A DNA stretch of 30,566 bases from a virus. The number at the start of each line of letters is the position of its first letter. Positions within the stretch are counted from its first letter, which is position 1. A model generated the notes under the pieces. It worked only from the letters and a program-made list of their open reading frames with translations, had not been told where the DNA came from and ran no database searches. Below, in pieces: positions 1-18,203 of the stretch. The position numbers and the translations under genes were made by a program. The stretch is taken from IMG/VR virus record IMGVR_UViG_3300010148_000068, positions 1 to 30,566 of that record, one strand, 5' to 3'.

Positions 1-3000
1 ATCTCTATGTGAAACATATCCATAATCACTATAAGTTGCATAGCCAACTCTTGTTCTACCAATATTTGCATATGCATTTGAATCATCACTAACTAATAAA
101 TTAGTACCATCAAATGTCATGTTTGCTTCGGCATTCATTCCGTCTGCTCCGGTAGCAGTGACTACTCTATTATTAGAACCATTAGTCATAAAATCAGATA
201 CATCGACTGATATATCATCTGCTCCAACATCGATGCCGGTACCAGCTCCTATATTTAAAGTAACTGTTCCAGATGTACCACCACCAGTTAATCCAGAACC
301 TGCAGTAACGCCTTCAATATCTCCAGATCCACCGCCACCGGAGTTAGTTATCCAATTTGTTCCTGTTCCGGTAGAAGATAATATTTGACCAGAAGATCCT
401 AAATCTCCTGATGAATCTCTAAATCCTCCATCTACTTTAATATTTCCATGAAAATATGCATCATCAGTTGTAGTTCCATTTCTATCAACAATATTGTCGA
501 CTTCTAAAGCATAACCTGCAGTGACTTTTGAAGTAGCTCCAATTCCTATTCCTATAGGTCCATTAGTAGTTTTTAATCCAGAATGAAAACACACTAACCC
601 TTGAGAGTTAAACGTACCAGCGGCAGTTGTATCATAACTTGATACTCCTAACAATCTAAAATCATATGCCGATCTAACAAATCTAAAACGCTGGCCTGAG
701 TTTTGTACCATTACTCTTCCAGATGCTGCTCCTATATCTCCAACACTTCCGCCTCCATATGTAACACTTCCTCCTGCTGGATAAACTCTTGTTTGAAATA
801 ATTGATAAAACCAATCATCAGCATCTCCATAAAATCCATATGCATATGCACTACTACCACTAACTGCGACAAGAGCTGCATATCCTACAGCACTAGTAGC
901 ACATTCTATAGTAACTTCATGTCCTTGACTATTTGATTTAATTGGTGGTTGTATCATACCAATTGGATTATTAGGAACACATTCAATTCTAACAGACTGT
1001 GCTATGCCTCCACCTAAAGATCCATCTAATACTAATTTAGTATAATTTTTTCCTCCCGTTGTATATTGTTCAAAGAATGAACCAGAATTAGCAACATTTA
1101 TTTTTAATAATTTAAATACAAAATAATCAGCTTTAGCATAATCTGTTAATTCTATTTGTTTAGCTGATACTTCTCCTGCAGGAGTAACATTGAAATTTGA
1201 AGATGAAATTGATATTATGTTACTATCATATTTAAAATGACTACCAGTATCTGTTCCTACAAAAAATCTTGGATTACCATTATTGTATTGTAATTGTATT
1301 CCAGTATCTGTATAACTACCTGTTGCTATTGATAATGATTTATTTGCTGAATCTAATAATATTGATTGTTTTTCTGAATTAAATGTTGTAGTTTGATTTG
1401 CTCCAGATACAAAAATAAGACTATTTGCGTCACTATATTCTGAATCATTTATAAAATAAAGATCTCCATCAAAACTAGAAGATGCAACCATAAAACCATC
1501 TAATGAAAAGAACTTGGCAGACGGAGTTCCAAAGTTTCCAACTTTTGCGACTGATACAGCTGCAAATGGAGTACCTTCTCCATCAACTTCTGCAAATAAA
1601 GCTTTTTGAGTTTCAAATTCTCCTTGTTCTGTTGCTAATACATATAAGTTACCAGCTTGAGCTAATCCATTCCAAAAATTAACATCTACTAGTCCAGAAT
1701 TTTTATTTCCTGTTGCATCGTTAGTTAATTGTGATGTTGAAAAATAATCTATTGAAACATTTAGTTGACCTGATGATGGTGCATTATTCATAGCTATAAA
1801 TGAACAACTAACATTTGTATTTGTTACAGATTGACTTACAACTGAAATTATTTCTGGAGTACCTTCAAATTTATTAGCAGATAATTCAAATCCTCCAATT
1901 AAACCTGCACTTGCAGTAATTCTACCAGATCCTGATAAAACAAGATTACCATTAGAACTTGCTATAGCATCGCTAGAAAGATTAAATCCTCCAATATCAC
2001 CTGCTGTTGCAGTAATAGTACCTGTCATTGATACATTACCATTATTATCTAAATGGAAATTAGATGATGAAATTTCTATATTTCCGTTGGCTCCTGATAT
2101 AAATTGATTTGCTGCTCCTAAGAAATATGTAGATGAACTTATAAATAATTTGGGAGATCCTCCGGTATCAAATTTAATAAATTGATTTGCATCGCCTGCC
2201 CTAAATATTGTTCTAGATCCATCGTCTTTTGTTGCAGCAAAAAATGGCAATGATGTATTATCAATTAATTCGCCAGGATTACTTCCAAGAATTATTCCAA
2301 ATGAATCTTCTCCATCAACGGTATACTCGCCTGATTTGACATCTAATCGAATTCGTTCTCCACCCGAGTCATTACCAGTTAATGTATTTGTACTAATATC
2401 AAATCCACCAATTTCTCCGCCAGTAAGTAAAGCTTTAGAGCCAGTTATTTGACCTAATGCTCCTTTTAATTTTAGTGTGCCAGAAGTTGAGTCTAGATCA
2501 GTTCCAATATTAAATCCACCTATAGTTCCAGACTCTGCTACAATTTTTCCTGTAATTTGAGCATTTGACGCAGTCATATTACCAGATGCTGATAATATTA
2601 GATTGCTATTGGAACTTTTTATTCCTACTGAATTAATATTAAACCCTGCAATAGTTCCTGCAGTATTTGCTGTAATTGTATTTGCTATTATATCACCGGT
2701 AATATTTGCATTAGATGCAGTTATGTTACCAGATGCTGACAGAATTAAATTACTATTCGAACTTTTTATTCCTACTGAATTAATATCAAAGCCTGCAATT
2801 TCACCACCATCTAATAAAACTTTAGATCCTGTTATTTGGCCTGTATCTCCTCTTAATATTAAAGTGTCATTAGACGATGATATAGCTGTAGACGTAATAG
2901 CAAATCCACCTATTTGTCCAAATGTTGCTGTTATGCCTCCTTGCAAATATACATTGTCAGTTGCTAAACCAAATCCTGGTGCTTGATTTCCAAATACTAT

Positions 3001-6000
3001 ACTAGATCCAGCTAATCCAGATAAATCTCCAAGTCTAGCTTTTAATGCTATATCATAAATTGCAGATCCTGTTCTTTCAACAATATCAATAAACGGAGTT
3101 GCTTGATTATTAGGGTTTGCATTTAATCTTATAAACCCACTTCCAACTTTACCAGTTGATACTAATACTTGAGAACCAGAATATGATTGTGCTGCTCCTG
3201 GAGAGTCTCCTAAGGAAGCACTACTAAAACCAGAATCAGCTGGTAATGAACCTGAATAACCTCTTTGTACAAATATATTTCCAGAAAAGTCATCATCGCT
3301 ACTTGAATCATTTCTAGATGAAGATTCAACAAATATATATTCAGTACCAAAACCAGTACTACTAACTTTTTTAGCAGATAATATTTCTCCTATAGAAAAT
3401 CCAGTAACGTTAACTACAGACATTGTTGTATCGGTTGGTAGATAATCTGGACTAGTATGTAGTGCAGATGAAGTTAATGTTGTAGAATTTGCTACATATA
3501 ATTGTCCTCCAACCGCATTAACTGTTTCTTTTTCAAATACTGCAGTTGATAATGTACCTCTAATTTTTGCATTTTCAAATTCTGCAAAGCCATTGTCTTG
3601 TGCTGATATTTTCCAACCTTTTAAATCAGATGCATAATCTGCAGTTTGAATACTTCCCGCAGAATCAATAACAATATTACTACCAGTAATAGTATCAGAT
3701 GTTAATGTAAATCCTCCAATAGTACCACCATCAAATAAAACATCACTACCAGTTATTTGTCCTGACGATTTCATTCTAAGATTATTATTTGAAGACTTGA
3801 TCTCATTTGTAGATAATTCGAATCCACCAACTACTCCTCCTTCAAGTAATACTCTAGAACCAGTAATTATACCACCTGCAGACACTTTGAATAGAGACGA
3901 TGATATAAACGATGCAGGATCGTTAGTATCTGTAGATGATGAAATTGTATATGACGTTGTAGATAATTTTGTATCAGATATAGTTAATCCGCCGATGACA
4001 TTTCGTGTTGGCGATAATTCAAATAGTCTATTTCCTGCAACGTCGAAACCTTTGATACCAAATACATCATCAGTAAGTTGTCCAATCGCAAGCATTACAT
4101 TATCTGCATCGTTATCACCTATATTATTCTTACCTTCGCCGGAATCTCCATGAAATGTCATTAATTGATAATCAGCATCTATCCTAATACCAAATTTATC
4201 TTGAGTAGAAGTTTTAAAAGATGATAATTTTTTATCATCAAATGCCCATGATGAAATTTTATTTCCATTTCCGCCAGGATCTCCTAATAGGAACACATTA
4301 TTACCTCCTTGTGTTCCTATTATACCAAAATCAGTTGCAGTAGTATGGAATATTCGTATACGATTATTATCATCTTCTCTAACTTCAATAGTTGGAGATG
4401 ATGTATCTGCGTCTAATATTATACCTTTATTAGAGGCATTAACACTTGAAAGTGTGTCGCCTATTATATCCCAATTTCCAATTGTTCCTTCGGTTGCTGT
4501 AATTTTTCCGCTTATTTGTGCGTTAGATGCTGTTATTTGACCTGATGCTGATAATATTAAGTTACTATTTGAAGATTTAATACCAACTGAATTAATATTA
4601 AACCCTGCAATAGTTCCTGCTGTGTTTGCAGTAATTGTATTTGCTACTATATCTCCAGTTATATTAGCATCAGATGCTGTTATTTGTCCTGATGCAGATA
4701 ATATTAAGTTGCTATTTGAAGATTTAATACCGATTGTATTAATATTAAATCCTGCAATATCTCCTCCATCAAATAAAACTTTAGATCCTGTTATCTGTCC
4801 AGAATCTTTCATTTTTAACACACTTCCAACTGCAATTTCATCATTACTTACTGGCATACCTGCTACACTTCCTCCATTTAATAATAATGTAGAAGCAGTA
4901 ACTTGTCCAGATGCTTTCAATCTTAAATTAGAATTTGCAGATCTTATTTCTTCCTCACTTACAGTAAAGCCGGCTATTGAGGCTGATCTAAATATAGCCA
5001 ATCCTTGATCGGATATAGAAGCTGAAGCTTCAGAAACAGATAATCCTGCAGGTACTAATATACTATTTGCAGAAACAGATCCTTCTATTGTTACGTCGCT
5101 AGTTATACGACCTCCTCTTAATAAAAATTTAGATGCAGTAATATCTCCAGTTGGTTGTATATGATATCCAGATGATGATATTTCTAATTCTCCGTTTGCT
5201 CCAGAAATAAATTGAACATCATCTTTTCCTAAAAAGAATTTAGGAGTTTGTATATCAACATTAGATCCACTTATTAATAATTGTGCAGATGCAGAAGAAA
5301 ATGCAAAATGAGCTGCTGTATTTTTTCCTATAAAGAAATTACCTGTATTATCTAAAAATGATGTAAAATCATTTATAGTTGCATTAGTTCCATCGCCTTC
5401 AGCAATTGCTTCATGGAATCCTAAAACGGTTGAGGTCATTAACAAACCTTTTGACAAACCTCCAGTTGTATCTACTTCAGATAATGATCCTGTTAAGAAA
5501 TCAAAATTAGGACCCGTTGGCCCTGTGGCTCCTGCATCTCCTTGTGCTCCTTGTGTTCCTTGTCTTGATTTAGCAAGTGTCATTGTTTTAGTAATACTAA
5601 CACTAGCACTGTTTGCAGTAAAATTAATTGATCCAGAATCATGAGCCATACCAGTAACTGTTATTGCGTTGCTAGAACTAGTAGCAGTAACTCCAATTGT
5701 ATTAGATCCAGTATAAGTAAAACTAGAAGTTGAATTAGTTAATCCAACAAAAACAATCATTTCAGAAGTTCCATCGGCAAAGCTAGATACAGTACCACTA
5801 CTATCAGCAGGAAAAGTATGAGATTCATTTGTTAAGAATCCGGTAACTGCAGGTGCTCCGTCAGCTCCAGCTGCACCAGCTGCGCCATCTGATCCAGAAG
5901 ATCCTCCATCTAACTTAAAAATCCTTGTTGTATCTGATAATCCGTCTTTTGTAACTTCTATAGTTAATGGTAATTTTGATTTAGTACTACTTACTGTTGA

Positions 6001-9000
6001 ACTAAAAGTAATACTACCAGATACTTGGCCAGATCCATTTGTTACATCTGCAACTAATGTAGGATCTGATAATGTAGTTCCAGATGAATCTTTAATAGTT
6101 AAATCACCAGTACCAATAGTATCTGACAAATTTTGTTGATTAATTATAATTAATATATCATCATCTAAAGCTGTAGTTGAAGAGGCACTAGGAAATGAAA
6201 ATACTTGAGAGTCGGTTGTTAAAACTAATGTTTTAGCTGTGCTTCCAGATTCACCTGTTTTTGATTTAGCTAAATTCATTGTTTTGGTTAAACTAACACT
6301 AGCACTAACTGCGGTAAAATTGATAGATCCTGAATCGTGACTCATTCCTGTAACAGTTAATGAATTACTTGAGCTTGTAGCAGTAACTCCATTAGAATTA
6401 GATCCGGTAAATGTAAAGCTAGATGTAACATTATCTAAACCTAAAAATACTATCATTTCGGTAGTGCCAGTAGAAAAGTCTGGTACTGTACCGTCTGCAG
6501 AAGCTGGAAATGTATGAGACTCATTAGTTAAAAATGCAGTTATCGATGCTTGTCCGTCTGCTCCTGTTGCTCCATCAGACCCGTCTGAGCCAGATGATCC
6601 TCCTTCTAATTTAAAGATTCTAGTTGTATCACTAACACTATCACGAGCTACTTCAATTGTTAAAGGAAGTTTAGTTTTATTCCCTCCAACTGTACCGCTA
6701 AATGTAATACTACCCGAAACTTGACCTGTTCCTGATGTAACGTCTGTTATTAAACTAGGATTAGTTAATGTATTACCGCCAGAATCTTTTATGGTAATAT
6801 TACTAGAAACTACGGCTGAATCTAAATTTTGTTGATTAATAATAAATAATATGTCGTCATCAATTGCATCGCTACTAGACGCAGATGGAAATGAAAATAC
6901 TTGAGAATCAGTTGTTAATGTAATTAATTTTGCACTACTGCCAGGATCTCCGTCAGATCCAGCTTTTGACTTAGCTAACGACATGATTTTAGTTAATGAT
7001 GTACTTCCGCTCGTTGCTGTTATGTTAATTGATCCAGTATCACTTGTTAATCCTGTTACTGTAATAGTATTATTTGTTATATTAGAACTAACTCCTGTTC
7101 CATTTGTTCTGGAAAATGAATAACTGCTTGTTACATTAGTAATACCTTCAAAGACAATCATATCAGTTGAGCCACCATCGAATGATGATATAGTTCCTGA
7201 TTCATCTGCAGAGAATGTATGTGATTCATTTGTTAAGAATGCTGTTACTGCATCTATACCGTCTGCTCCAGCTGCACCTGCTGCTCCGTCAGAACCAGAC
7301 GCTCCTGCTGATCCACCTTCAACTTTAAATAACGACGTAGTGTCTGTTAATGAGTCTCCAGAAACTTCAATTGATACTGGAAAATTATCTTTATCTGAAT
7401 TTAATCCTCCTCCAGATAATGCTCCTGCAAATGTTATACTACCACTTACAATTCCACTAACTAAACCTGCAGAGTTAAATGATATACTATTTGTGTCAAA
7501 ATCAAATCCAGTAACATTTCCTCCTTGTGCAGTTGTGATAGTAACGTTACTTGCTGATATGCTGGCAGTTAAATTTTGTTGAGCTATACTAAATATTATA
7601 TTTGATGGTGTTGCTAAATTTGATGAAGCTGATGCAAATGCCATTACTTGTGAATCAGTTGTTAATATTAATGATTTTGCTGTATTTGATGCAGTTGCTT
7701 CATTTATAGCATCATCAACTGTTTGTCCTGATTCTAATCGTAATTGTCCTCTAACTGTTAAAGCTGATCCATCCCATGTTAATTTGTCACCTAATGAAAA
7801 ATTAGATCCTGAATCTACATAAAACCCAGTATCTGAATTTGCGTGATTACCAGCTCCAATATATAATTTACTAGATTCCATTTCTATACCAGCAATAGAT
7901 CCAGTATTAGCTATAATACCACCTTGTAAAAATACATTATCTGTTGCTAAACCAAATCCAGGTGTAGGATTTCCAAATACATAATCAGAATTTGCTAATC
8001 CACTTAAATCTCCTAAACGAACTTTTAAATCAACATCATATAATCCACTTCCTGTTCTTTCTACAATATCTATAAAAGGAGTATTAGAATCTCTTGGATT
8101 TGCGTTCATTTTAATATAACCGCTACCACTTAATCCTGTTGAAACTATAACTTGTCCTTCGTCATATGATTGTGATGTTGATGCTAAATCTCCTACAAAT
8201 GATCCAGCTGATCCAGAACCATATCCACGTTGAATATAAATTCTACCATGCACTTCATCTGCGTTTGAATTATCACCATCTACTGATGCAGATTCTACTA
8301 AAAGATATTCTGTCTGAAATCCAGTTCCATCAACTTTTTTTGCTAATAATATTTCTCCAACAGTGAATCCGGATGCGTTTGCAACTGACATTGTTGTATC
8401 ATTTGCAGTAACATTTGATCCAGATATTGTTGTTGCGTTAGTAACCCATAATTGACCGCCAACTGCGTTTACTGATTCTTTTTCGAATGTAGTTGTTCTT
8501 AATGTACCTCTAATTCTTACATTTTCAAATTCTGCAGTACCATTTCCTTCAGATGAAATTTTCCATCCTTTAAAGCCACTAGCAAAATCTCTTGTTTGCA
8601 AAATACCTTGTGGCTTCATTATAAGATTACCACCTTGTATTGATGCAGTAGTAATATCCCATCCGCCAATGGATGCAGATCTAAATATAGCTAATCCTTG
8701 ATCGGATATTGATGATGATGCATTAGTTGGTGTTGACGGAGATCCTCCAATTGTAGCTGGTGTCTGAATACTGTTTGCTGTAACGGAACCTAATATAGTT
8801 ACTCCGTCTGTAATTGTACCACCCTCTAATAATACTCTAGAAGCTGTAATATTACCATCTGCTTTTAGTCGTAATTCAGAGTCTGCAGATCTTATTTCGT
8901 TAGGATTAATAACAAATCCTGCTATTGAGGCTGATCTAAATATAGCTAATCCTTTATCAGATATAGAAGCTGACGCATTAGCTGCGGTAGATGGTGATCC

Positions 9001-11217
9001 ACCAATTGTTGCTGGAGTTAATATGCTATTTGCAGAAACAGATCCTAATATGGTAACGTCATCAGTAATAGTTCCGCCTTCAATTAATATTTTTGATGCA
9101 GTAATATCTCCAGTTGATTGTATATGATATCCGGATGAGGATATTTCTAATTGACCATTAGCTCCAGAAATAAATTGAGTTGCAGGATTTCCTAGGAAAA
9201 ATGTTTCAGTGTGTACATCTAAAATACTAGGATTTGTTCGATATCTAAAGAAATTATTTGCATCAGAAACAAGTTCTAGTCCAACTCCTTCATATGATGT
9301 TGTTGCTTGTTGAGGTAAAGCAGATCCAGAAAATAATAAAAATCCTCCTCTTCCGCCTGTTATTGCTTGATTAAATCCTTCATATCCTAATGATCTAATA
9401 TAGCCAGTATTTTGAAGTCCTACTATTTCTACACCTGAATTTAAAGAATCTGCAACAGTTAATGATCCAGTTAACATTGAAAAATCGCCGTCAATGTATC
9501 TATTGCCTCCTTCAAAAGGTTTGTTTCCTATAAAGCTAACTGTTTTACTTTTATTACCAGCAATATTATAATATTCTAATTTAAATGATAATTGATTATT
9601 ACTTTTATGATGATTTGGAATTAATGTACGTAATCTAGTATAATTTTCAGTAAACCCAAATTCTGAGTCTGATAATGTTTGAATTTCTGATAATTGCCAT
9701 TGGCCGTTTTCTACTACAAAAAATATTGATGCTAATCCATCTTGATCAGCATTAAATATAAAACTAACATCATCATATCGTTGATTTGTAGCAGTTGTAG
9801 TAATTTCACCAATTTTTTTTCCTATCTTTATAGGTAATTCTAAATTTAATGGATCTGTTCCATCAAAATTAAAAGATGATCCAGATAAATAAATAGAAAG
9901 TTTTGAATCTTGTCCTGGAATAATTTGTGTTGCAATTGCATCAAATTGTATTTTATATTGAGAGTCTTCAACAAAAACTCCAGAAATTGCATCTATAGAT
10001 TTTACAACATGAACACTATTTGGTGCTGATATGTCAGTAGAGCTACTAATTATCATAGCATTATTTAATGAACTTGTTGACCAAACTAATGTTGGGCCAG
10101 TTACTTCAGTATTTCCTAAAAATGTTTTTCCTTCCCAATATTCATTAATTAAACTTTGAGATGTAAAAAATCCTATAGAAACATCAGGTAAATCAGAACC
10201 AGTTGCATCTACAAATATTTCTGTTGCTGTTAAGTCTATATCATTAATTAATTCAAAATCTCCTATAGTTCCATCATTACTAGCATATAATTTTAATCTA
10301 GATACATCTCCAGATTGTGGATCTAAGTTCTTAACTTGCATTAATGCAAATGATTGCGAATTTTGAGTTGTTGCAAAATTTGGAGATACATTATATTCAA
10401 TTGAATATGAAGAATTATCAAATTCATTATATCTTTGTATAGATAAGCTTTGGCTAGTTGTAAATGTAAATGGTTTTTCTAATGATAGTGTTGTATCATT
10501 TAATACTTTTAATATTTTAGAAGTATAAATAGGAGTTGAATTTAAAGAAAAATTTGGTACTGGTTTAGGATTAATAGGATTTGTTACAGTTAATGTTCCA
10601 CCCTTCATATCAGAATTAAATTTTCCTCCAGTTAAAATAACTTTTGGATCATTATTTCGTTCAATGTATTGTATAGTACCTATATCATATGTTGTTGTTT
10701 GTAAACTTCCAGAAAATGATCGATCTAATTGTACAGCTATTTGTTCTTCTATAGTTATAGTAGGTTCGTTTGTAAATATAATTTCACTACTATTCTGTAT
10801 AGTTGGAGTTACAGGTATTATTTTTGACCATTTTGCATTAACACGATTTTGAAAATTAAATGGTACTAATTGTCCGTTGAGTTGAAATATTTCAGTACCT
10901 AATATTATTGTTGCATCGCCTTCCGGCGTATCTGGATAAATATAAACTACAATAACTCTTGATCCGTCGTCTTCTAAATAATCAAGAATTTCATTGTATA
11001 TTGGATCTCCATTAGCATCTATAACTTCTATTTCAATAAATGCACCAGTTACTAATGTATTTTGATTTCCTTGTAACTTTATTACATTTTTTCCTGCAGT
11101 TAATGTTGTAGGAAATTCAGTTATTCGAAATATATCTGGAGAAGTATCTGATGTGTCAGTAAAGAATACTTGTCTGTCAGATAATTTGGGATTATTTAAT
11201 CGTCGTTTTCTTGGCAT
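1..11217 (-). CDS. Giant repetitive tail fibre / adhesin protein, C-terminus beyond the window (3739 codons visible)
   Basis: Reading the minus strand from ATG at 11217 (protein starts MPRKRRLNNPKLSD) gives an open frame with no stop to base 1, so 3739 codons are visible and the end is missing. The first ~490 residues are non-repetitive beta-rich sequence and probably hold the attachment part (inference). Then come repeated phage-fibre modules: at least 15 short units of the type (G/A)GF-x-I...SSNxNLxLxxSGxITxS; two copies of a ~220-residue module starting KGWKIS (residues ~883 and ~2533); three tandem ~240-residue units (residues ~1181-1902) with Gly-rich links, the last being collagen-like (GTQGAQGDAGATGPTGP). 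The visible end has a Gly-rich stretch (GDIEGVTAGSGLTGGGTSG, ~residue 3630) of a kind seen just before fibre C-terminal domains. AAGAAG lies 12 bases before the ATG. The role, host binding, is inferred from repeat style and from position after the baseplate genes. A C-terminal peptidase S74 chaperone would be expected but is not visible. Confidence 0.92.
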   Translation of the reverse strand, partial: MPRKRRLNNPKLSDRQVFFTDTSDTSPDIFRITEFPTTLTAGKNVIKLQGNQNTLVTGAFIEIEVIDANGDPIYNEILDYLEDDGSRVIVVYIYPDTPEGDATIILGTEIFQLNGQLVPFNFQNRVNAKWSKIIPVTPTIQNSSEIIFTNEPTITIEEQIAVQLDRSFSGSLQTTTYDIGTIQYIERNNDPKVILTGGKFNSDMKGGTLTVTNPINPKPVPNFSLNSTPIYTSKILKVLNDTTLSLEKPFTFTTSQSLSIQRYNEFDNSSYSIEYNVSPNFATTQNSQSFALMQVKNLDPQSGDVSRLKLYASNDGTIGDFELINDIDLTATEIFVDATGSDLPDVSIGFFTSQSLINEYWEGKTFLGNTEVTGPTLVWSTSSLNNAMIISSSTDISAPNSVHVVKSIDAISGVFVEDSQYKIQFDAIATQIIPGQDSKLSIYLSGSSFNFDGTDPLNLELPIKIGKKIGEITTTATNQRYDDVSFIFNADQDGLASIFFVVENGQWQLSEIQTLSDSEFGFTENYTRLRTLIPNHHKSNNQLSFKLEYYNIAGNKSKTVSFIGNKPFEGGNRYIDGDFSMLTGSLTVADSLNSGVEIVGLQNTGYIRSLGYEGFNQAITGGRGGFLLFSGSALPQQATTSYEGVGLELVSDANNFFRYRTNPSILDVHTETFFLGNPATQFISGANGQLEISSSGYHIQSTGDITASKILIEGGTITDDVTILGSVSANSILTPATIGGSPSTAANASASISDKGLAIFRSASIAGFVINPNEIRSADSELRLKADGNITASRVLLEGGTITDGVTILGSVTANSIQTPATIGGSPSTPTNASSSISDQGLAIFRSASIGGWDITTASIQGGNLIMKPQGILQTRDFASGFKGWKISSEGNGTAEFENVRIRGTLRTTTFEKESVNAVGGQLWVTNATTISGSNVTANDTTMSVANASGFTVGEILLAKKVDGTGFQTEYLLVESASVDGDNSNADEVHGRIYIQRGYGSGSAGSFVGDLASTSQSYDEGQVIVSTGLSGSGYIKMNANPRDSNTPFIDIVERTGSGLYDVDLKVRLGDLSGLANSDYVFGNPTPGFGLATDNVFLQGGIIANTGSIAGIEMESSKLYIGAGNHANSDTGFYVDSGSNFSLGDKLTWDGSALTVRGQLRLESGQTVDDAINEATASNTAKSLILTTDSQVMAFASASSNLATPSNIIFSIAQQNLTASISASNVTITTAQGGNVTGFDFDTNSISFNSAGLVSGIVSGSITFAGALSGGGLNSDKDNFPVSIEVSGDSLTDTTSLFKVEGGSAGASGSDGAAGAAGADGIDAVTAFLTNESHTFSADESGTISSFDGGSTDMIVFEGITNVTSSYSFSRTNGTGVSSNITNNTITVTGLTSDTGSINITATSGSTSLTKIMSLAKSKAGSDGDPGSSAKLITLTTDSQVFSFPSASSSDAIDDDILFIINQQNLDSAVVSSNITIKDSGGNTLTNPSLITDVTSGTGQVSGSITFSGTVGGNKTKLPLTIEVARDSVSDTTRIFKLEGGSSGSDGSDGATGADGQASITAFLTNESHTFPASADGTVPDFSTGTTEMIVFLGLDNVTSSFTFTGSNSNGVTATSSSNSLTVTGMSHDSGSINFTAVSASVSLTKTMNLAKSKTGESGSTAKTLVLTTDSQVFSFPSASSTTALDDDILIIINQQNLSDTIGTGDLTIKDSSGTTLSDPTLVADVTNGSGQVSGSITFSSTVSSTKSKLPLTIEVTKDGLSDTTRIFKLDGGSSGSDGAAGAAGADGAPAVTGFLTNESHTFPADSSGTVSSFADGTSEMIVFVGLTNSTSSFTYTGSNTIGVTATSSSNAITVTGMAHDSGSINFTANSASVSITKTMTLAKSRQGTQGAQGDAGATGPTGPNFDFLTGSLSEVDTTGGLSKGLLMTSTVLGFHEAIAEGDGTNATINDFTSFLDNTGNFFIGKNTAAHFAFSSASAQLLISGSNVDIQTPKFFLGKDDVQFISGANGELEISSSGYHIQPTGDITASKFLLRGGRITSDVTIEGSVSANSILVPAGLSVSEASASISDQGLAIFRSASIAGFTVSEEEIRSANSNLRLKASGQVTASTLLLNGGSVAGMPVSNDEIAVGSVLKMKDSGQITGSKVLFDGGDIAGFNINTIGIKSSNSNLILSASGQITASDANITGDIVANTITANTAGTIAGFNINSVGIKSSNSNLILSASGQITASNAQISGKITATEGTIGNWDIIGDTLSSVNASNKGIILDADTSSPTIEVREDDNNRIRIFHTTATDFGIIGTQGGNNVFLLGDPGGNGNKISSWAFDDKKLSSFKTSTQDKFGIRIDADYQLMTFHGDSGEGKNNIGDNDADNVMLAIGQLTDDVFGIKGFDVAGNRLFELSPTRNVIGGLTISDTKLSTTSYTISSSTDTNDPASFISSSLFKVSAGGIITGSRVLLEGGVVGGFELSTNEIKSSNNNLRMKSSGQITGSDVLFDGGTIGGFTLTSDTITGSNIVIDSAGSIQTADYASDLKGWKISAQDNGFAEFENAKIRGTLSTAVFEKETVNAVGGQLYVANSTTLTSSALHTSPDYLPTDTTMSVVNVTGFSIGEILSAKKVSSTGFGTEYIFVESSSRNDSSSDDDFSGNIFVQRGYSGSLPADSGFSSASLGDSPGAAQSYSGSQVLVSTGKVGSGFIRLNANPNNQATPFIDIVERTGSAIYDIALKARLGDLSGLAGSSIVFGNQAPGFGLATDNVYLQGGITATFGQIGGFAITSTAISSSNDTLILRGDTGQITGSKVLLDGGEIAGFDINSVGIKSSNSNLILSASGNITASNANITGDIIANTITANTAGTIAGFNINSVGIKSSNSNLILSASGNMTASNAQITGKIVAESGTIGGFNIGTDLDSTSGTLKLKGALGQITGSKALLTGGEIGGFDISTNTLTGNDSGGERIRLDVKSGEYTVDGEDSFGIILGSNPGELIDNTSLPFFAATKDDGSRTIFRAGDANQFIKFDTGGSPKLFISSSTYFLGAANQFISGANGNIEISSSNFHLDNNGNVSMTGTITATAGDIGGFNLSSDAIASSNGNLVLSGSGRITASAGLIGGFELSANKFEGTPEIISVVSQSVTNTNVSCSFIAMNNAPSSGQLNVSIDYFSTSQLTNDATGNKNSGLVDVNFWNGLAQAGNLYVLATEQGEFETQKALFAEVDGEGTPFAAVSVAKVGNFGTPSAKFFSLDGFMVASSSFDGDLYFINDSEYSDANSLIFVSGANQTTTFNSEKQSILLDSANKSLSIATGSYTDTGIQLQYNNGNPRFFVGTDTGSHFKYDSNIISISSSNFNVTPAGEVSAKQIELTDYAKADYFVFKLLKINVANSGSFFEQYTTGGKNYTKLVLDGSLGGGIAQSVRIECVPNNPIGMIQPPIKSNSQGHEVTIECATSAVGYAALVAVSGSSAYAYGFYGDADDWFYQLFQTRVYPAGGSVTYGGGSVGDIGAASGRVMVQNSGQRFRFVRSAYDFRLLGVSSYDTTAAGTFNSQGLVCFHSGLKTTNGPIGIGIGATSKVTAGYALEVDNIVDRNGTTTDDAYFHGNIKVDGGFRDSSGDLGSSGQILSSTGTGTNWITNSGGGGSGDIEGVTAGSGLTGGGTSGTVTLNIGAGTGIDVGADDISVDVSDFMTNGSNNRVVTATGADGMNAEANMTFDGTNLLVSDDSNAYANIGRTRVGYATYSDYGYVSHRD
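2582..2806 (-). repeat. DNA-level repeat in the fibre gene, copy B
   Basis: About 225 bases closely resembling 4541-4765, offset by exactly 1959 bases (653 codons). Both encode two successive units containing NINSVGIKSSNSNLILSASG or close variants. Similarity is visible in the DNA (shared stretches such as gaattaatattaaaccctgc), so this is a recent duplication or a conversion product. Confidence 0.75.
2935..3621 (-). repeat. Duplicated ~229-residue fibre module, copy 2
   Basis: Protein-level repeat from KGWKIS through AEFENAKIRGTLSTAVFEKE, VNAVGGQLYV, DTTMSVVNVTGFSIGEIL, NIFVQRGYSGS, TPFIDIVERTGS and RLGDLSGLAG to GFGLATDNVYLQGG. It matches the copy at 7918-8571 along its whole length. This copy carries about 11 extra residues, spread over the region after QLYV and around the QRGYSGS segment. 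Confidence 0.85.
4541..4765 (-). repeat. DNA-level repeat in the fibre gene, copy A
   Basis: Partner of 2582-2806, encoding NINTIGIKSSNSNLILSASG and NINSVGIKSSNSNLILSASG back to back with an ANTITANTAGTIAGF linker that is also found in the other copy. Confidence 0.75.
5512..6234 (-). repeat. Tandem fibre repeat, unit 3 of 3 (with collagen-like tail)
   Basis: Third of three protein-level repeats inside the giant fibre. It begins KTLVLTTDSQVFSFPSASS, passes GQVSGSITFSS, a link DGAAGAAGADGAP and FLTNESHTFPA, and closes with LAKSRQ followed by Gly-X-Y triplets. The two halves look like beta-sandwich (Ig-like) domains separated by Gly-rich linkers; the fold is inferred. Confidence 0.8.
6235..6930 (-). 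repeat. Tandem fibre repeat, unit 2 of 3
   Basis: Second unit. It starts KLITLTTDSQVFSFPSASS, has GQVSGSITFSG, the link GSDGSDGATGADGQ, FLTNESHTFPA and TVTGMSHDSGSINFTA, and ends LAKSKTGESGSTA. It is 232 residues long and very close to unit 3 in protein sequence. Confidence 0.82.
6931..7677 (-). repeat. Tandem fibre repeat, unit 1 of 3 (most diverged)
   Basis: First unit, 249 residues. It starts KSLILTTDSQVMAFASASS, contains GIVSGSITFAG, the link GSDGAAGAAGADGI, FLTNESHTFSA and TVTGLTSDTGSINITA, and ends LAKSKAGSDGDPGSSA. It keeps the landmarks of units 2 and 3 but is visibly more diverged. Confidence 0.78.
7918..8571 (-). repeat. Duplicated ~218-residue fibre module, copy 1
   Basis: First copy of the KGWKIS module: KGWKISSEGNG, AEFENVRIRGTL, FEKESVNAVGGQLWV, DTTMSVANASGFTVGEILL, RIYIQRGYGSG, TPFIDIVERTGS, RLGDLSGLAN and GFGLATDNVFLQGG. 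The 'GEIL..KKV' and 'IVERTGS' segments are the most conserved between the copies. Confidence 0.85.
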
Positions 11218-15443: not shown

Positions 15444-15462
15444 AAAAATAATGATTATTTTT
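15444..15462 (-). terminator. Possible weak terminator after endonuclease I
   Basis: AAAAATAAT (15444-15452) and ATTATTTTT (15454-15462) are exact reverse complements around one base and begin at the endonuclease stop codon. On the minus strand the second arm runs into seven T residues. A stem made only of A-T pairs is unlikely to stop transcription efficiently, so this is tentative. Confidence 0.3.
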
Positions 15463-15950
15463 CAATTATCCAACCAATCATTTAAAAATTTAACTTTTTT
15501 TGGTTCTTCATTTATTTTACAACATTCATTTAACCAATCTTCTGGCATATCCTTTTTTGCAACATGTTTTATTCCAATTTTAGTTGCATACATTTCATAT
15601 GTTGTTTTTGATCCTTTTGATATTTTTTGATTTGGATTTTGAAATATAATCCTTAAATCAATATTTGGATTAGATGCTAAAATATGTTTCATTTTTTGTC
15701 TATCAGTACTGGTCCATCTTCCTTTTGTTTCAATATACATTGTGTTACCATTCTTTTTTGTAAAAACAAAATCAGGTGTGTACTTTGAATTTTTTTGAGG
15801 AACAATATATTGTAATGTTTCTGTTTCATATTTTACTGGATATTTTGCTTCTTTTATTTGATCTGCAACTTTTAATTCTAATCCAGATCTATATCCATAT
15901 TTATACGCTGCTTGGCGTTGTTTATTATTTGAATGCCAATGATTTTTCAT
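15462..15950 (-). CDS. T7 endonuclease I-like Holliday junction resolvase
   Basis: A 162-residue protein that reads colinearly with T7 gp3: YRSGLELKVADQ, YTPDFVF, YIETKGRWTSTDRQK, IDLRIIFQNPNQKISKGSKT, then MPEDWL. The catalytic residues of the family are all present (Glu25, Asp60, Glu74 and Lys76 in this numbering, equivalent to T7 E20, D55, E65, K67). It should cut branched and four-way DNA during recombination and before packaging. I chose ATG 15950 over the in-frame ATG at 15971 because AAAGGA sits 9 bases before 15950, right after the stop of the preceding gene, whereas 15971 would overlap that gene. Its neighbours (kinase-like gene, primase, Mre11/Rad50) place it in a recombination cassette. 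The T4 resolvase is the unrelated endonuclease VII, so this is a mosaic trait. Confidence 0.95.
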   Translation of the reverse strand: MKNHWHSNNKQRQAAYKYGYRSGLELKVADQIKEAKYPVKYETETLQYIVPQKNSKYTPDFVFTKKNGNTMYIETKGRWTSTDRQKMKHILASNPNIDLRIIFQNPNQKISKGSKTTYEMYATKIGIKHVAKKDMPEDWLNECCKINEEPKKVKFLNDWLDN

Positions 15951-15964
15951 AACTTTTTTTCCTT

Positions 15965-16513
15965 TTACCAATCGATCATTACTAAATTACCATTCCAATC
16001 CATAATATTATCTGGTTTAAAATCTAATGATAATTCTAAATCGCCGATTCCTGTGTCTTTAACTTGTTGTTCTAACGCACTTATAAAACTAGCTAGTTTT
16101 TGATTAATATTTCTAGCTCCATTATTATTAAAATAATCAAAAATACTTGTTTCAATACCTTGTTGTCTTGCATAGTTTTTATAATTTTCATAAAATGTTT
16201 CTATTTCTGTAAACATAGATGCTGATAATTTATTTGCTCGCTTCATAATATACATTTTATTATTATCTGTATAGATTACTGGAATAAATGCGTTATATTT
16301 ATCATATTGTCCAACAATAACATCTGCAACTGCAACTTCATCTGGTTCTGATGTTATTTTCATTAATAAATCTTCTCCATCTATAGTATAAACTTTTCCA
16401 TTATCACCACTATCAAAAAATTGAAAATTTTTATTTCGTATTTTTGATAATATTCTTTCTGATTCTATTTCAGAAATTTCTTTTAATATATTTGATAATT
16501 TAATCAAGTTCAT
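15965..16513 (-). CDS. Very short protein-kinase-like protein
   Basis: 182 residues from the chosen start. Visible kinase-fold landmarks in order: a Gly-containing loop DSGDNGKVY (34-42), LLMKIT with a candidate ATP-binding Lys52, an acidic residue after it (E56 or E59), a hinge-like MYIMKRA (87-93), a helical middle region, a catalytic-loop-like LDFKPDN (Asp164, Lys166, Asn169; compare RDLKPEN) and VMID with Asp181 in the position of the DFG Asp. The chain ends one residue later (W182), so the activation segment and the rest of the C-lobe are absent, and the HRD His/Arg are replaced. This suggests a minimal kinase or phosphotransferase, or a pseudokinase. The start at 16513 has AAAGAA upstream and overlaps the 567-aa gene by 14 bases; a longer frame from 16555 is less likely. 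The target is unknown. Family assignment is by motif reading only. Confidence 0.7.
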   Translation of the reverse strand: MNLIKLSNILKEISEIESERILSKIRNKNFQFFDSGDNGKVYTIDGEDLLMKITSEPDEVAVADVIVGQYDKYNAFIPVIYTDNNKMYIMKRANKLSASMFTEIETFYENYKNYARQQGIETSIFDYFNNNGARNINQKLASFISALEQQVKDTGIGDLELSLDFKPDNIMDWNGNLVMIDW

Positions 16514-18203
16514 TTGTTTCTTTAATATTTGCAAATCGATCTTGATCAAGATCAACTCTAACTAAAATATTTGTATCAATATCATTTCTATTTTTTATTG
16601 GATTAGCTAATTTTCCAATAGCTAATAATTCTGCATGTTTATTATATAAACCTATAGTTGTAACATATGGTTGAAAATTACTAGAAGTAACATGACTTAA
16701 ATATGTTTCATTATCATCTTTTAAAGCTGAATGATTCGTCGTTAAATTAAAATCTCCTGCATCTATTTTACATAATGTACTAAATTCAAAAATATTTATT
16801 GTACTTTTATATTTTACTGTATATTCAGATTCTAATAAATTATTATATCTATAATCAGCACTTGATATAACAAAAATTCCATTATTATGAAATGCATTAC
16901 CAACACGATTTGTTTGTAATAAAGAACCTCCTTCTGTACGATCAGATAATGAAGCAATATCTGATGCATTTAATCCTTTATTATATATTCTAACTTCATC
17001 TAATACGCCATTTAAATTTCTATTATTTGCAGCAAATCCTCCTATTTTTATAGGATGTATATTACTTATATTACCAGAAGCAGTATGAAAAGTCTGTATT
17101 TCATCTGTTGGTAGTAATGAATCTGATGATAATGATTTATGTAAAACATTGTTAATATACATTTGCATTGTACTACCAGTCTTTTGACAAACTACATGTG
17201 TCCAACTACTAGTAACATGTGCATCAGATAAAAGTTCAAATTGTAACTGCGAACTTGCAGCAATTGAATATTTAATTTTTCCATTACTTAAATATATTCT
17301 AAATGGATATTGTCGAAATTGATGATTTGATGTTTTTGATATAATATTATCATCAAAGCTATTTTTATTAGATCCGCTACATATATAAAATGATATAGCA
17401 TAATCATGATCACGATCATATATTCCATCAATATTAGTTTTTAAAAACGAAGAACCTGTAAAAAATGCAGCATATCCAATATTACTTTCTGATCCATTTG
17501 TTGTTAATACTCCCGGAACAAATGATAAAGATTGGGTTACAGATGTTTTTTCATATATTGGCTTTAATGGAAATGATTGTCCACGATCTAGATTTTCTGA
17601 TGTTAAATTTAATCTAGTAATATCAAAATATTCATTAAATCCTTCATAAAATGTTTCATTTGTTACATATGAACTAGTATCAATAGCAGAATCAATAATA
17701 TTTTCATACTTATCAGAATGTAAATTTACTGATCCACTATATATAAAAGATCCTGGTTTTACTTTTAATCCCATCTTTTTTTGAGGAATACTAAAAACAG
17801 ATGCTGATTGATATAATATTTTTGTAGATTTATCTAACGGCGTTATTATTCCGTGAGTTTTAAATGCGTCATTTTTATATTTGTAAAATAAATGATTTAA
17901 CGAATGATATACAGAAAACGAATATGAACCATTTAAATTTTTTCTAAAATTTTGTTGTTCTGGATGATTAAATAAATAAGCTACGCCATCAGATCCAATT
18001 TCTGGTGTTCCTGTAACATAATTTGCAAACATAGCCATATAATCATTGTTGTCATCAAATGGATCACCTGAATTTATTTCACTTCCAGAAGTTAATGTAA
18101 ATTGTTTGTTAATTTGTATAGGAGTAATTTTAGTGTCGGCTTGATCAACACGTTTAAAAACTTGTGGATGAACTCCGTTTTTATCTTTAATTAAATTTGG
18201 CAT
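16500..18203 (-). CDS. Tail structural protein with LamG-like domain and shared C-terminal module (567 aa)
   Basis: Residues ~1-230 are an unrecognised beta-rich region. Residues ~240-418 look like a LamG/concanavalin-type jelly roll: YAAFFTGSSFLKTN, DYAISFYIC, SSWTHVVCQKTGSTMQMYIN and LDEVRIYNKGLNASDIASL at the end. Residues ~430-560 contain GIFVISS, GDFNLTTNHS and YVTTIGLYNKHAELLAIGKL, a module also found at the end of the 466-aa protein encoded just upstream. LamG domains bind sugars or proteins, so a role on the tail surface or in host recognition is likely but inferred. The start codon lies 10 bases after the GGGG of a strong hairpin (18214-18246), with no other Shine-Dalgarno sequence. 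The end overlaps the kinase-like gene. Confidence 0.8.
   Translation of the reverse strand: MPNLIKDKNGVHPQVFKRVDQADTKITPIQINKQFTLTSGSEINSGDPFDDNNDYMAMFANYVTGTPEIGSDGVAYLFNHPEQQNFRKNLNGSYSFSVYHSLNHLFYKYKNDAFKTHGIITPLDKSTKILYQSASVFSIPQKKMGLKVKPGSFIYSGSVNLHSDKYENIIDSAIDTSSYVTNETFYEGFNEYFDITRLNLTSENLDRGQSFPLKPIYEKTSVTQSLSFVPGVLTTNGSESNIGYAAFFTGSSFLKTNIDGIYDRDHDYAISFYICSGSNKNSFDDNIISKTSNHQFRQYPFRIYLSNGKIKYSIAASSQLQFELLSDAHVTSSWTHVVCQKTGSTMQMYINNVLHKSLSSDSLLPTDEIQTFHTASGNISNIHPIKIGGFAANNRNLNGVLDEVRIYNKGLNASDIASLSDRTEGGSLLQTNRVGNAFHNNGIFVISSADYRYNNLLESEYTVKYKSTINIFEFSTLCKIDAGDFNLTTNHSALKDDNETYLSHVTSSNFQPYVTTIGLYNKHAELLAIGKLANPIKNRNDIDTNILVRVDLDQDRFANIKETNELD

What the first reader, a model, noticed from the sequence alone, without database searches (positions are those of the whole stretch)
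15965..16513. Minimal kinase-like protein that ends right after the second metal-binding Asp
Gly-loop, Lys, catalytic-loop LDFKPDN and VMID are in kinase order, but the HRD His/Arg are lost and the protein stops at residue 182, one residue after the DFG-equivalent Asp, with no activation segment. It is encoded between a tail-surface protein and a resolvase. It may be a new phage kinase or pseudokinase family acting on host or virion proteins.
Basis: partly seen in the sequence, partly recalled or inferred. Interest (0 to 1): 0.7.

Follow-up and report, generated by a model that had tools for sequence, protein, structure and literature searches.

The report
Phage half-kinase ending at metal-binding Asp
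A gene in an aquatic T4-like phage makes what looks like half a protein kinase, keeping the ATP-handling half and ending one residue after the last metal-binding residue, and its first ten residues match a pattern shared by many proteins of these phages that resembles T4's signal for packing proteins into the head, so it may be injected into the host.

Summary
In detail: complement(15965..16513) is a real 182-aa gene whose kinase-order motifs end in D181-W182-stop. About 68 distinct proteins (window copy included; homologues down to 41% identity) keep K52, E56, E59, D164, N169 and D181 strictly, and every complete copy stops at exactly "DW". Two AlphaFold models (pLDDT 82.7 and 88.2) show a kinase N-lobe plus a stub of the C-lobe ending at the DFG Asp. 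All 50 listed PDB fold matches for each model are protein-kinase-like folds (best E 4e-4); sequence searches (Pfam, PDB) do not reach significance. A remote sister clade in Flavobacterium phage Immuto (146 aa) also stops one residue after the Asp, but has lost the HRD-equivalent Asp. The truncation is not a first of its kind: Shigella OspG and the phage Kinase-PolyVal family (PF18762) are also C-lobe-less, but the window family fails the PF18762 test. New here: the N-terminus fits M-I-[KR]-L-x-x-[LI]-L-x-E, found at the start of 13 and 8 mostly unrelated ORFs in two related contigs and laid out like T4's capsid-targeting sequence (MKTYQEFIAE); one of these contigs encodes a gp21-type protease. 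Best reading: an ATP-binding half-kinase, probably head-packaged and injected. Activity, packaging and target are inferred.

The parts
15965..16513 (-). kinase-like half-kinase gene, 182 aa, ATG at 16513, TAA at 15965-15967
   Evidence: ORF and translation; ~68 distinct proteins, all complete ones with the same end; AlphaFold pLDDT 88.2; Foldseek
16478..16513 (-). N-terminal tag MNLIKLSNILKE (residues 1-12), candidate capsid-targeting / prohead-protease sequence
   Evidence: I4, L6, L10, E12 conserved although residues 1-10 have pLDDT <50; same motif at the start of 13 ORFs in G002 and 8 in G001; T4 IPII/IPIII start MKTYQEFIAE
16394..16423 (-). Gly-rich loop region (QFFDSGDNGK, residues 31-40) between strands 1 and 2
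   Evidence: G36, D37, N38 invariant, G39 67/68; strands 30-36 and 39-44
16358..16360 (-). codon of Lys52 (beta-3 ATP-binding Lys)
   Evidence: invariant 68/68
16337..16348 (-). codons of E56-E59, candidate alpha-C Glu (helix 57-66)
   Evidence: E56 and E59 invariant; helix in model; which Glu pairs with Lys52 is not resolved
16007..16024 (-). catalytic-loop equivalent D164-F-K-P-D-N169
   Evidence: D164 and N169 invariant; D-to-N spacing 5 as in Kinase-PolyVal members
15968..15973 (-). D181 (DFG-Asp equivalent) and terminal W182
   Evidence: both invariant, always the last two residues in the window clade
15462..15950 (-). downstream T7 endonuclease I-like gene (context)
   Evidence: PF05367 E 7e-34
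16500..18203 (-). upstream LamG-like tail surface gene overlapping the kinase-like gene by 14 nt (context)
   Evidence: PF13385 E 4e-12; overlap from ORF coordinates

Best explanation
It is a phage half-kinase: a kinase N-lobe plus the catalytic loop and the DFG Asp, with nothing beyond, which binds ATP-Mg. The N-terminal ten-residue tag (M-I-K/R-L-x-x-I/L-L-x-E) probably targets it into the prohead, where a gp21-type protease would cut after the Glu; it would then be injected with the DNA, as T4 internal proteins and Alt are. In the host it would act, as proposed for OspG, only once a partner supplies the missing substrate-side surface, phosphorylating or otherwise modifying a host protein. 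Shown here: gene, family, invariant catalytic residues, fixed end point, predicted kinase-like fold, recurrence of the tag, and gp21/gp23/gp20 genes in one related contig. Inferred: ATP binding, packaging, cleavage, injection, activity, partner and target.
For:: K52/E56/E59/D164/N169/D181/W182 invariant and a fixed end in ~68 distinct proteins; pLDDT 88.2, pTM 0.84, strands and helices in kinase order; all 50 listed PDB matches are kinase-like folds (CK2, CDK2, choline kinase, APH, RIO1, PRPK, AceK, SAICAR synthetase); 57 viral matches at E<=1e-3, the listed named ones being kinases, the rest uncharacterised or unnamed; homology to the Immuto clade (hhalign E 6.6e-10, single pairwise comparison); tag at ORF starts against internal Met (Fisher p 1e-8 for the two contigs together). 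and PMC9026906: T4 CTS layout, residues 4, 7, 8 and 10. Peptidase_S77 3.8e-33, Gp23 4e-74, Portal_T4 7e-68 in G002; precedents for kinases without the C-lobe.
Against: No significant sequence match to Pfam kinases or PDB kinases; hhalign against YrbL, T7 gp0.7 and Kinase-PolyVal is at background level, though in the right register where it aligns. TM-scores to PDB chains are about 0.28-0.46 by query length in the listed hits. The tag regex was written after seeing the sequences, and tagged proteins include lysozyme-like enzymes that could be lysins rather than head cargo. No virion proteomics. The capsid genes of the window's own phage lie outside the fragment. The Immuto clade lost the HRD-equivalent Asp.
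Confidence: 0.5

Rival explanations
1. Nucleotide-binding pseudokinase: it binds ATP-Mg as a structural or regulatory ligand and scaffolds a virion or host complex without phosphotransfer.
For: No activation segment and no C-lobe for substrate docking; the Immuto sister clade replaced the HRD-equivalent Asp by Ser/Arg/Leu while keeping Lys, Asn and the DFG-equivalent Asp.
Against: D164 is invariant in ~68 distinct window-clade proteins down to 41% identity, and a C-lobe-less kinase (OspG) is reported active.
Confidence: 0.27
2. Ordinary intracellular late gene (tail or virion morphogenesis kinase) that is not packaged in the head; the N-terminal motif has another role.
For: Encoded next to LamG-like tail surface genes in nearly all loci examined; tagged proteins include lysozyme-like enzymes.
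Against: Motif layout equals the T4 CTS at residues 4, 7, 8 and 10 and recurs on unrelated proteins in a phage with a gp21-type protease.
Confidence: 0.2
3. Not a kinase: an unrelated fold that happens to carry the motif order.
For: No significant sequence match.
Against: Fold search is consistent across two models; the four residues named beforehand are invariant.
Confidence: 0.03

Closest known systems
Kinase-PolyVal (Pfam PF18762), polyvalent-protein and stand-alone kinases of Bacteroidetes/Verrucomicrobia-Chlamydia (pro)phages (PMC5512222)
   Same: whole C-lobe lost, active-site residues kept; D-to-N and D-to-D spacing identical (5 and 17); fetched stand-alone members end about 7-14 residues after the Asp
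   Different: no PF18762 match, no Glu before strand 2, no Gln in the last N-lobe strand; ends at residue D+1; carries the N-terminal tag
OspG / NleH effector kinases
   Same: half kinase (subdomains I-VII), small, no activation loop (PMC3585378); OspG is a structural match
   Different: OspG has a C-terminal ubiquitin-binding stretch after the kinase half; bacterial effectors, no sequence similarity found
T7 gp0.7 protein kinase
   Same: phage kinase; catalytic loop FDMHSGNIM..NG....ITD resembles LDFKPDNIM..NG...MID
   Different: 359 aa, continues past the Asp with a further C-terminal region; intracellular gene expressed from the infecting DNA (own knowledge)
T4 IPII/IPIII and Alt (delivery only)
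   Same: IPII/IPIII: N-terminal ten residues with hydrophobic 4, 7, 8 and Glu10; Alt is a packaged, injected protein modifier (PMC5512222)
   Different: unrelated domains; packaging of this protein is not shown
Flavobacterium phage Immuto gp177 (146 aa)
   Same: homologous N-lobe and tag; stops one residue after the Asp
   Different: shorter, HRD-equivalent Asp replaced

Membership tests
protein-kinase-like superfamily (fold) | N-lobe sheet with Gly loop, beta-3 Lys, alpha-C, hinge, catalytic loop D..N, DFG-type Asp in order | tested here: met
   Foldseek (predicted structure only)
canonical protein kinase (PF00069) | profile match above cut-off | tested here: not met
   no kinase among Pfam hits for the window protein or the A2 family
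canonical protein kinase (PF00069) | HRD motif, activation segment and alpha-F to alpha-I | tested here: not met
   SLD/LDF in place of HRD; protein ends at residue 182
Kinase-PolyVal (PF18762) | profile match | tested here: not met
   no PF18762 hit; none in eight related phage records even at E<=10; hhalign at background level
Kinase-PolyVal (PF18762) | Glu before strand 2 and Gln in last N-lobe strand | tested here: not met
   GDNGKVY and MYIMKRA in place of AEQKVY and VVEQ (features)
Kinase-PolyVal (PF18762) | loss of C-lobe with intact active site | tested here: met
T4-type capsid-targeted internal protein | N-terminal CTS with hydrophobic 4, 7, 8 and Glu10 | tested here: met
   criteria from PMC9026906. 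In the window copy the motif is shifted by two residues (Glu12)
T4-type capsid-targeted internal protein | gp21-family protease in the same genome | tested here: inconclusive
   present in G002 and annotated in Immuto; not in the 30.6-kb window fragment
T4-type capsid-targeted internal protein | present in virion and cleaved | not testable with these tools
   no proteomics
active kinase | phosphotransfer | not testable with these tools
   needs biochemistry

The most novel reading that the evidence does not exclude
A head-packaged, injected half-kinase that becomes complete only on a host protein, one of a large set of tagged cargo proteins in uncultured T4-like phages (related to a phage of Flavobacterium), with a sister clade that has turned pseudokinase.
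Probability: 0.3. Interest if true: 0.75.

Novelty: new variant of a known kind. Interest (0 to 1): 0.55.

Why it matters
It would show how little of the kinase fold natural selection can keep, and give a simple sequence tag that predicts the injected protein set of a group of aquatic phages known mostly from metagenomes. Immuto was isolated on a Flavobacterium host, so both points can be tested in the laboratory.

Tried and rejected
Pfam, PHROG (phrog_4301, best E 1.3e-4, function unknown) and PDB sequence searches: no kinase family reached significance. Stop-codon readthrough rejected: three different stops are used, and in about half of the copies the in-frame continuation is only 1-27 codons; where it is long its length (159 to 716 codons) follows the neighbouring gene. 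Split kinase with the C-lobe in the next gene considered unlikely: the neighbouring gene changes between clades. Bacterial genomes: no homologue found with A3. hhalign to YrbL, SrkA, T7 gp0.7 at background level. Attempts to fetch the Ralstonia phage RSB1 and Xylella phage Paz records, to see whether their short kinase-like proteins end at the same point, failed.

Full report
Gene and conservation. The finding is a 182-aa ORF on the minus strand (16513-15965) in a 30.6-kb IMG/VR fragment. Scans of viral contigs gave about 68 distinct full-length proteins. K52, E56, E59, D164, N169, D181 and W182 are invariant, and every complete copy ends at DW, whichever stop codon is used. The gene is under purifying selection (dN/dS 0.11-0.20 in three comparisons). 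No homologue was found in bacterial genomes with A3 or, at significant E-values, in cultured phage records.

Fold. AlphaFold with 29 and with 50 aligned sequences gave pLDDT 82.7 and 88.2 with elements in kinase order: strands 30-36, 39-44, 49-54, helix 57-66, strands 79-83, 87-91, helices 98-118 and 138-154, strands 170-173 and 176-179, end at 182. Foldseek lists kinase-like folds for all top 50 PDB chains with both models. Among viral models, a 47%-identical uncharacterised protein comes first, followed by many short uncharacterised phage proteins and named kinases. Sequence-only comparison does not reach significance, so kinship to a particular kinase family is open.

Sister clade. A tblastn hit at E = 8 led to Immuto gp177 (146 aa). 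The A2 profile finds it at E 1.6e-6 among the ORFs of the fetched loci (that small database flatters the E-value), and hhalign gives 6.6e-10 for the two profiles. It keeps the Lys, Asn and DFG-equivalent Asp, stops one residue after the latter, and has Ser, Arg or Leu where the HRD Asp would be. It also lies near tail and primase genes.

Tag. The family begins M-I-[KR]-L-x-x-[LI]-L-x-E (in the window copy shifted by two residues). The same motif starts 13 ORFs of G002 (159.6 kb) and 8 of G001 (173 kb), most of them unrelated (lysozyme-LysM, M23 plus tail lysozyme, DUF5872, a weak OmpA match). A stricter count of ATG-proximal cases, 12 and 6, against 3 of 858 and 3 of 801 internal Met gives Fisher p 7e-7 and 4e-3; the regex was written after seeing examples, so these values are optimistic. 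T4 IPII and IPIII start MKTYQEFIAE; in T4, residues 4 and 7 matter for targeting, and 8 and 10 for cleavage (PMC9026906). G002 encodes the gp21 protease, gp23 and gp20.

Known relatives in kind. OspG is a half kinase with subdomains I-VII that is activated by host ubiquitin (PMC3585378). Kinase-PolyVal is a phage kinase family that lost the C-lobe (PMC5512222); stand-alone members fetched from Bacteroidota genomes end about 7-14 residues after the Asp and share the D/N/D spacing, but the window family lacks the signature residues and the profile match.

Verdict. A real, conserved, C-lobe-less kinase-like family, new as a family but of a known kind; its candidate head-targeting tag is the most useful new lead. 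Activity, packaging and target remain to be tested.

Noticed in passing
G002 (L194-L201) and G001 (L203-L211); window 16478-16513: N-terminal motif MI[KR]Lxx[LI]LxE shared by many mostly unrelated proteins, like a T4 capsid-targeting sequence.
   Followed up: yes
L141:6001-6441 and L161-L192: Immuto-type sister clade lost the HRD-equivalent Asp: candidate pseudokinases.
   Followed up: partly
between kinase-like and endonuclease I genes in L040, L118, L128, L143, L160 and others: Variable accessory-gene hotspot (0-2 different genes).
   Followed up: no
Immuto MW353176.1: proteins starting at 1803, at L141 6441, and a third at 118588 or nearby: Second shared N-terminal tag MEN(x)FDLKKFLVENKLT on at least three Immuto proteins.
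   Followed up: no
G002, start codons of three tagged genes: TATTTATTAxTATG immediately upstream of three tagged genes, possibly a late-promoter-like element.
   Followed up: no
window 1-11217 (-): Open-ended ORF of at least 3739 aa with many internal repeats, tail-fibre-like.
   Followed up: no
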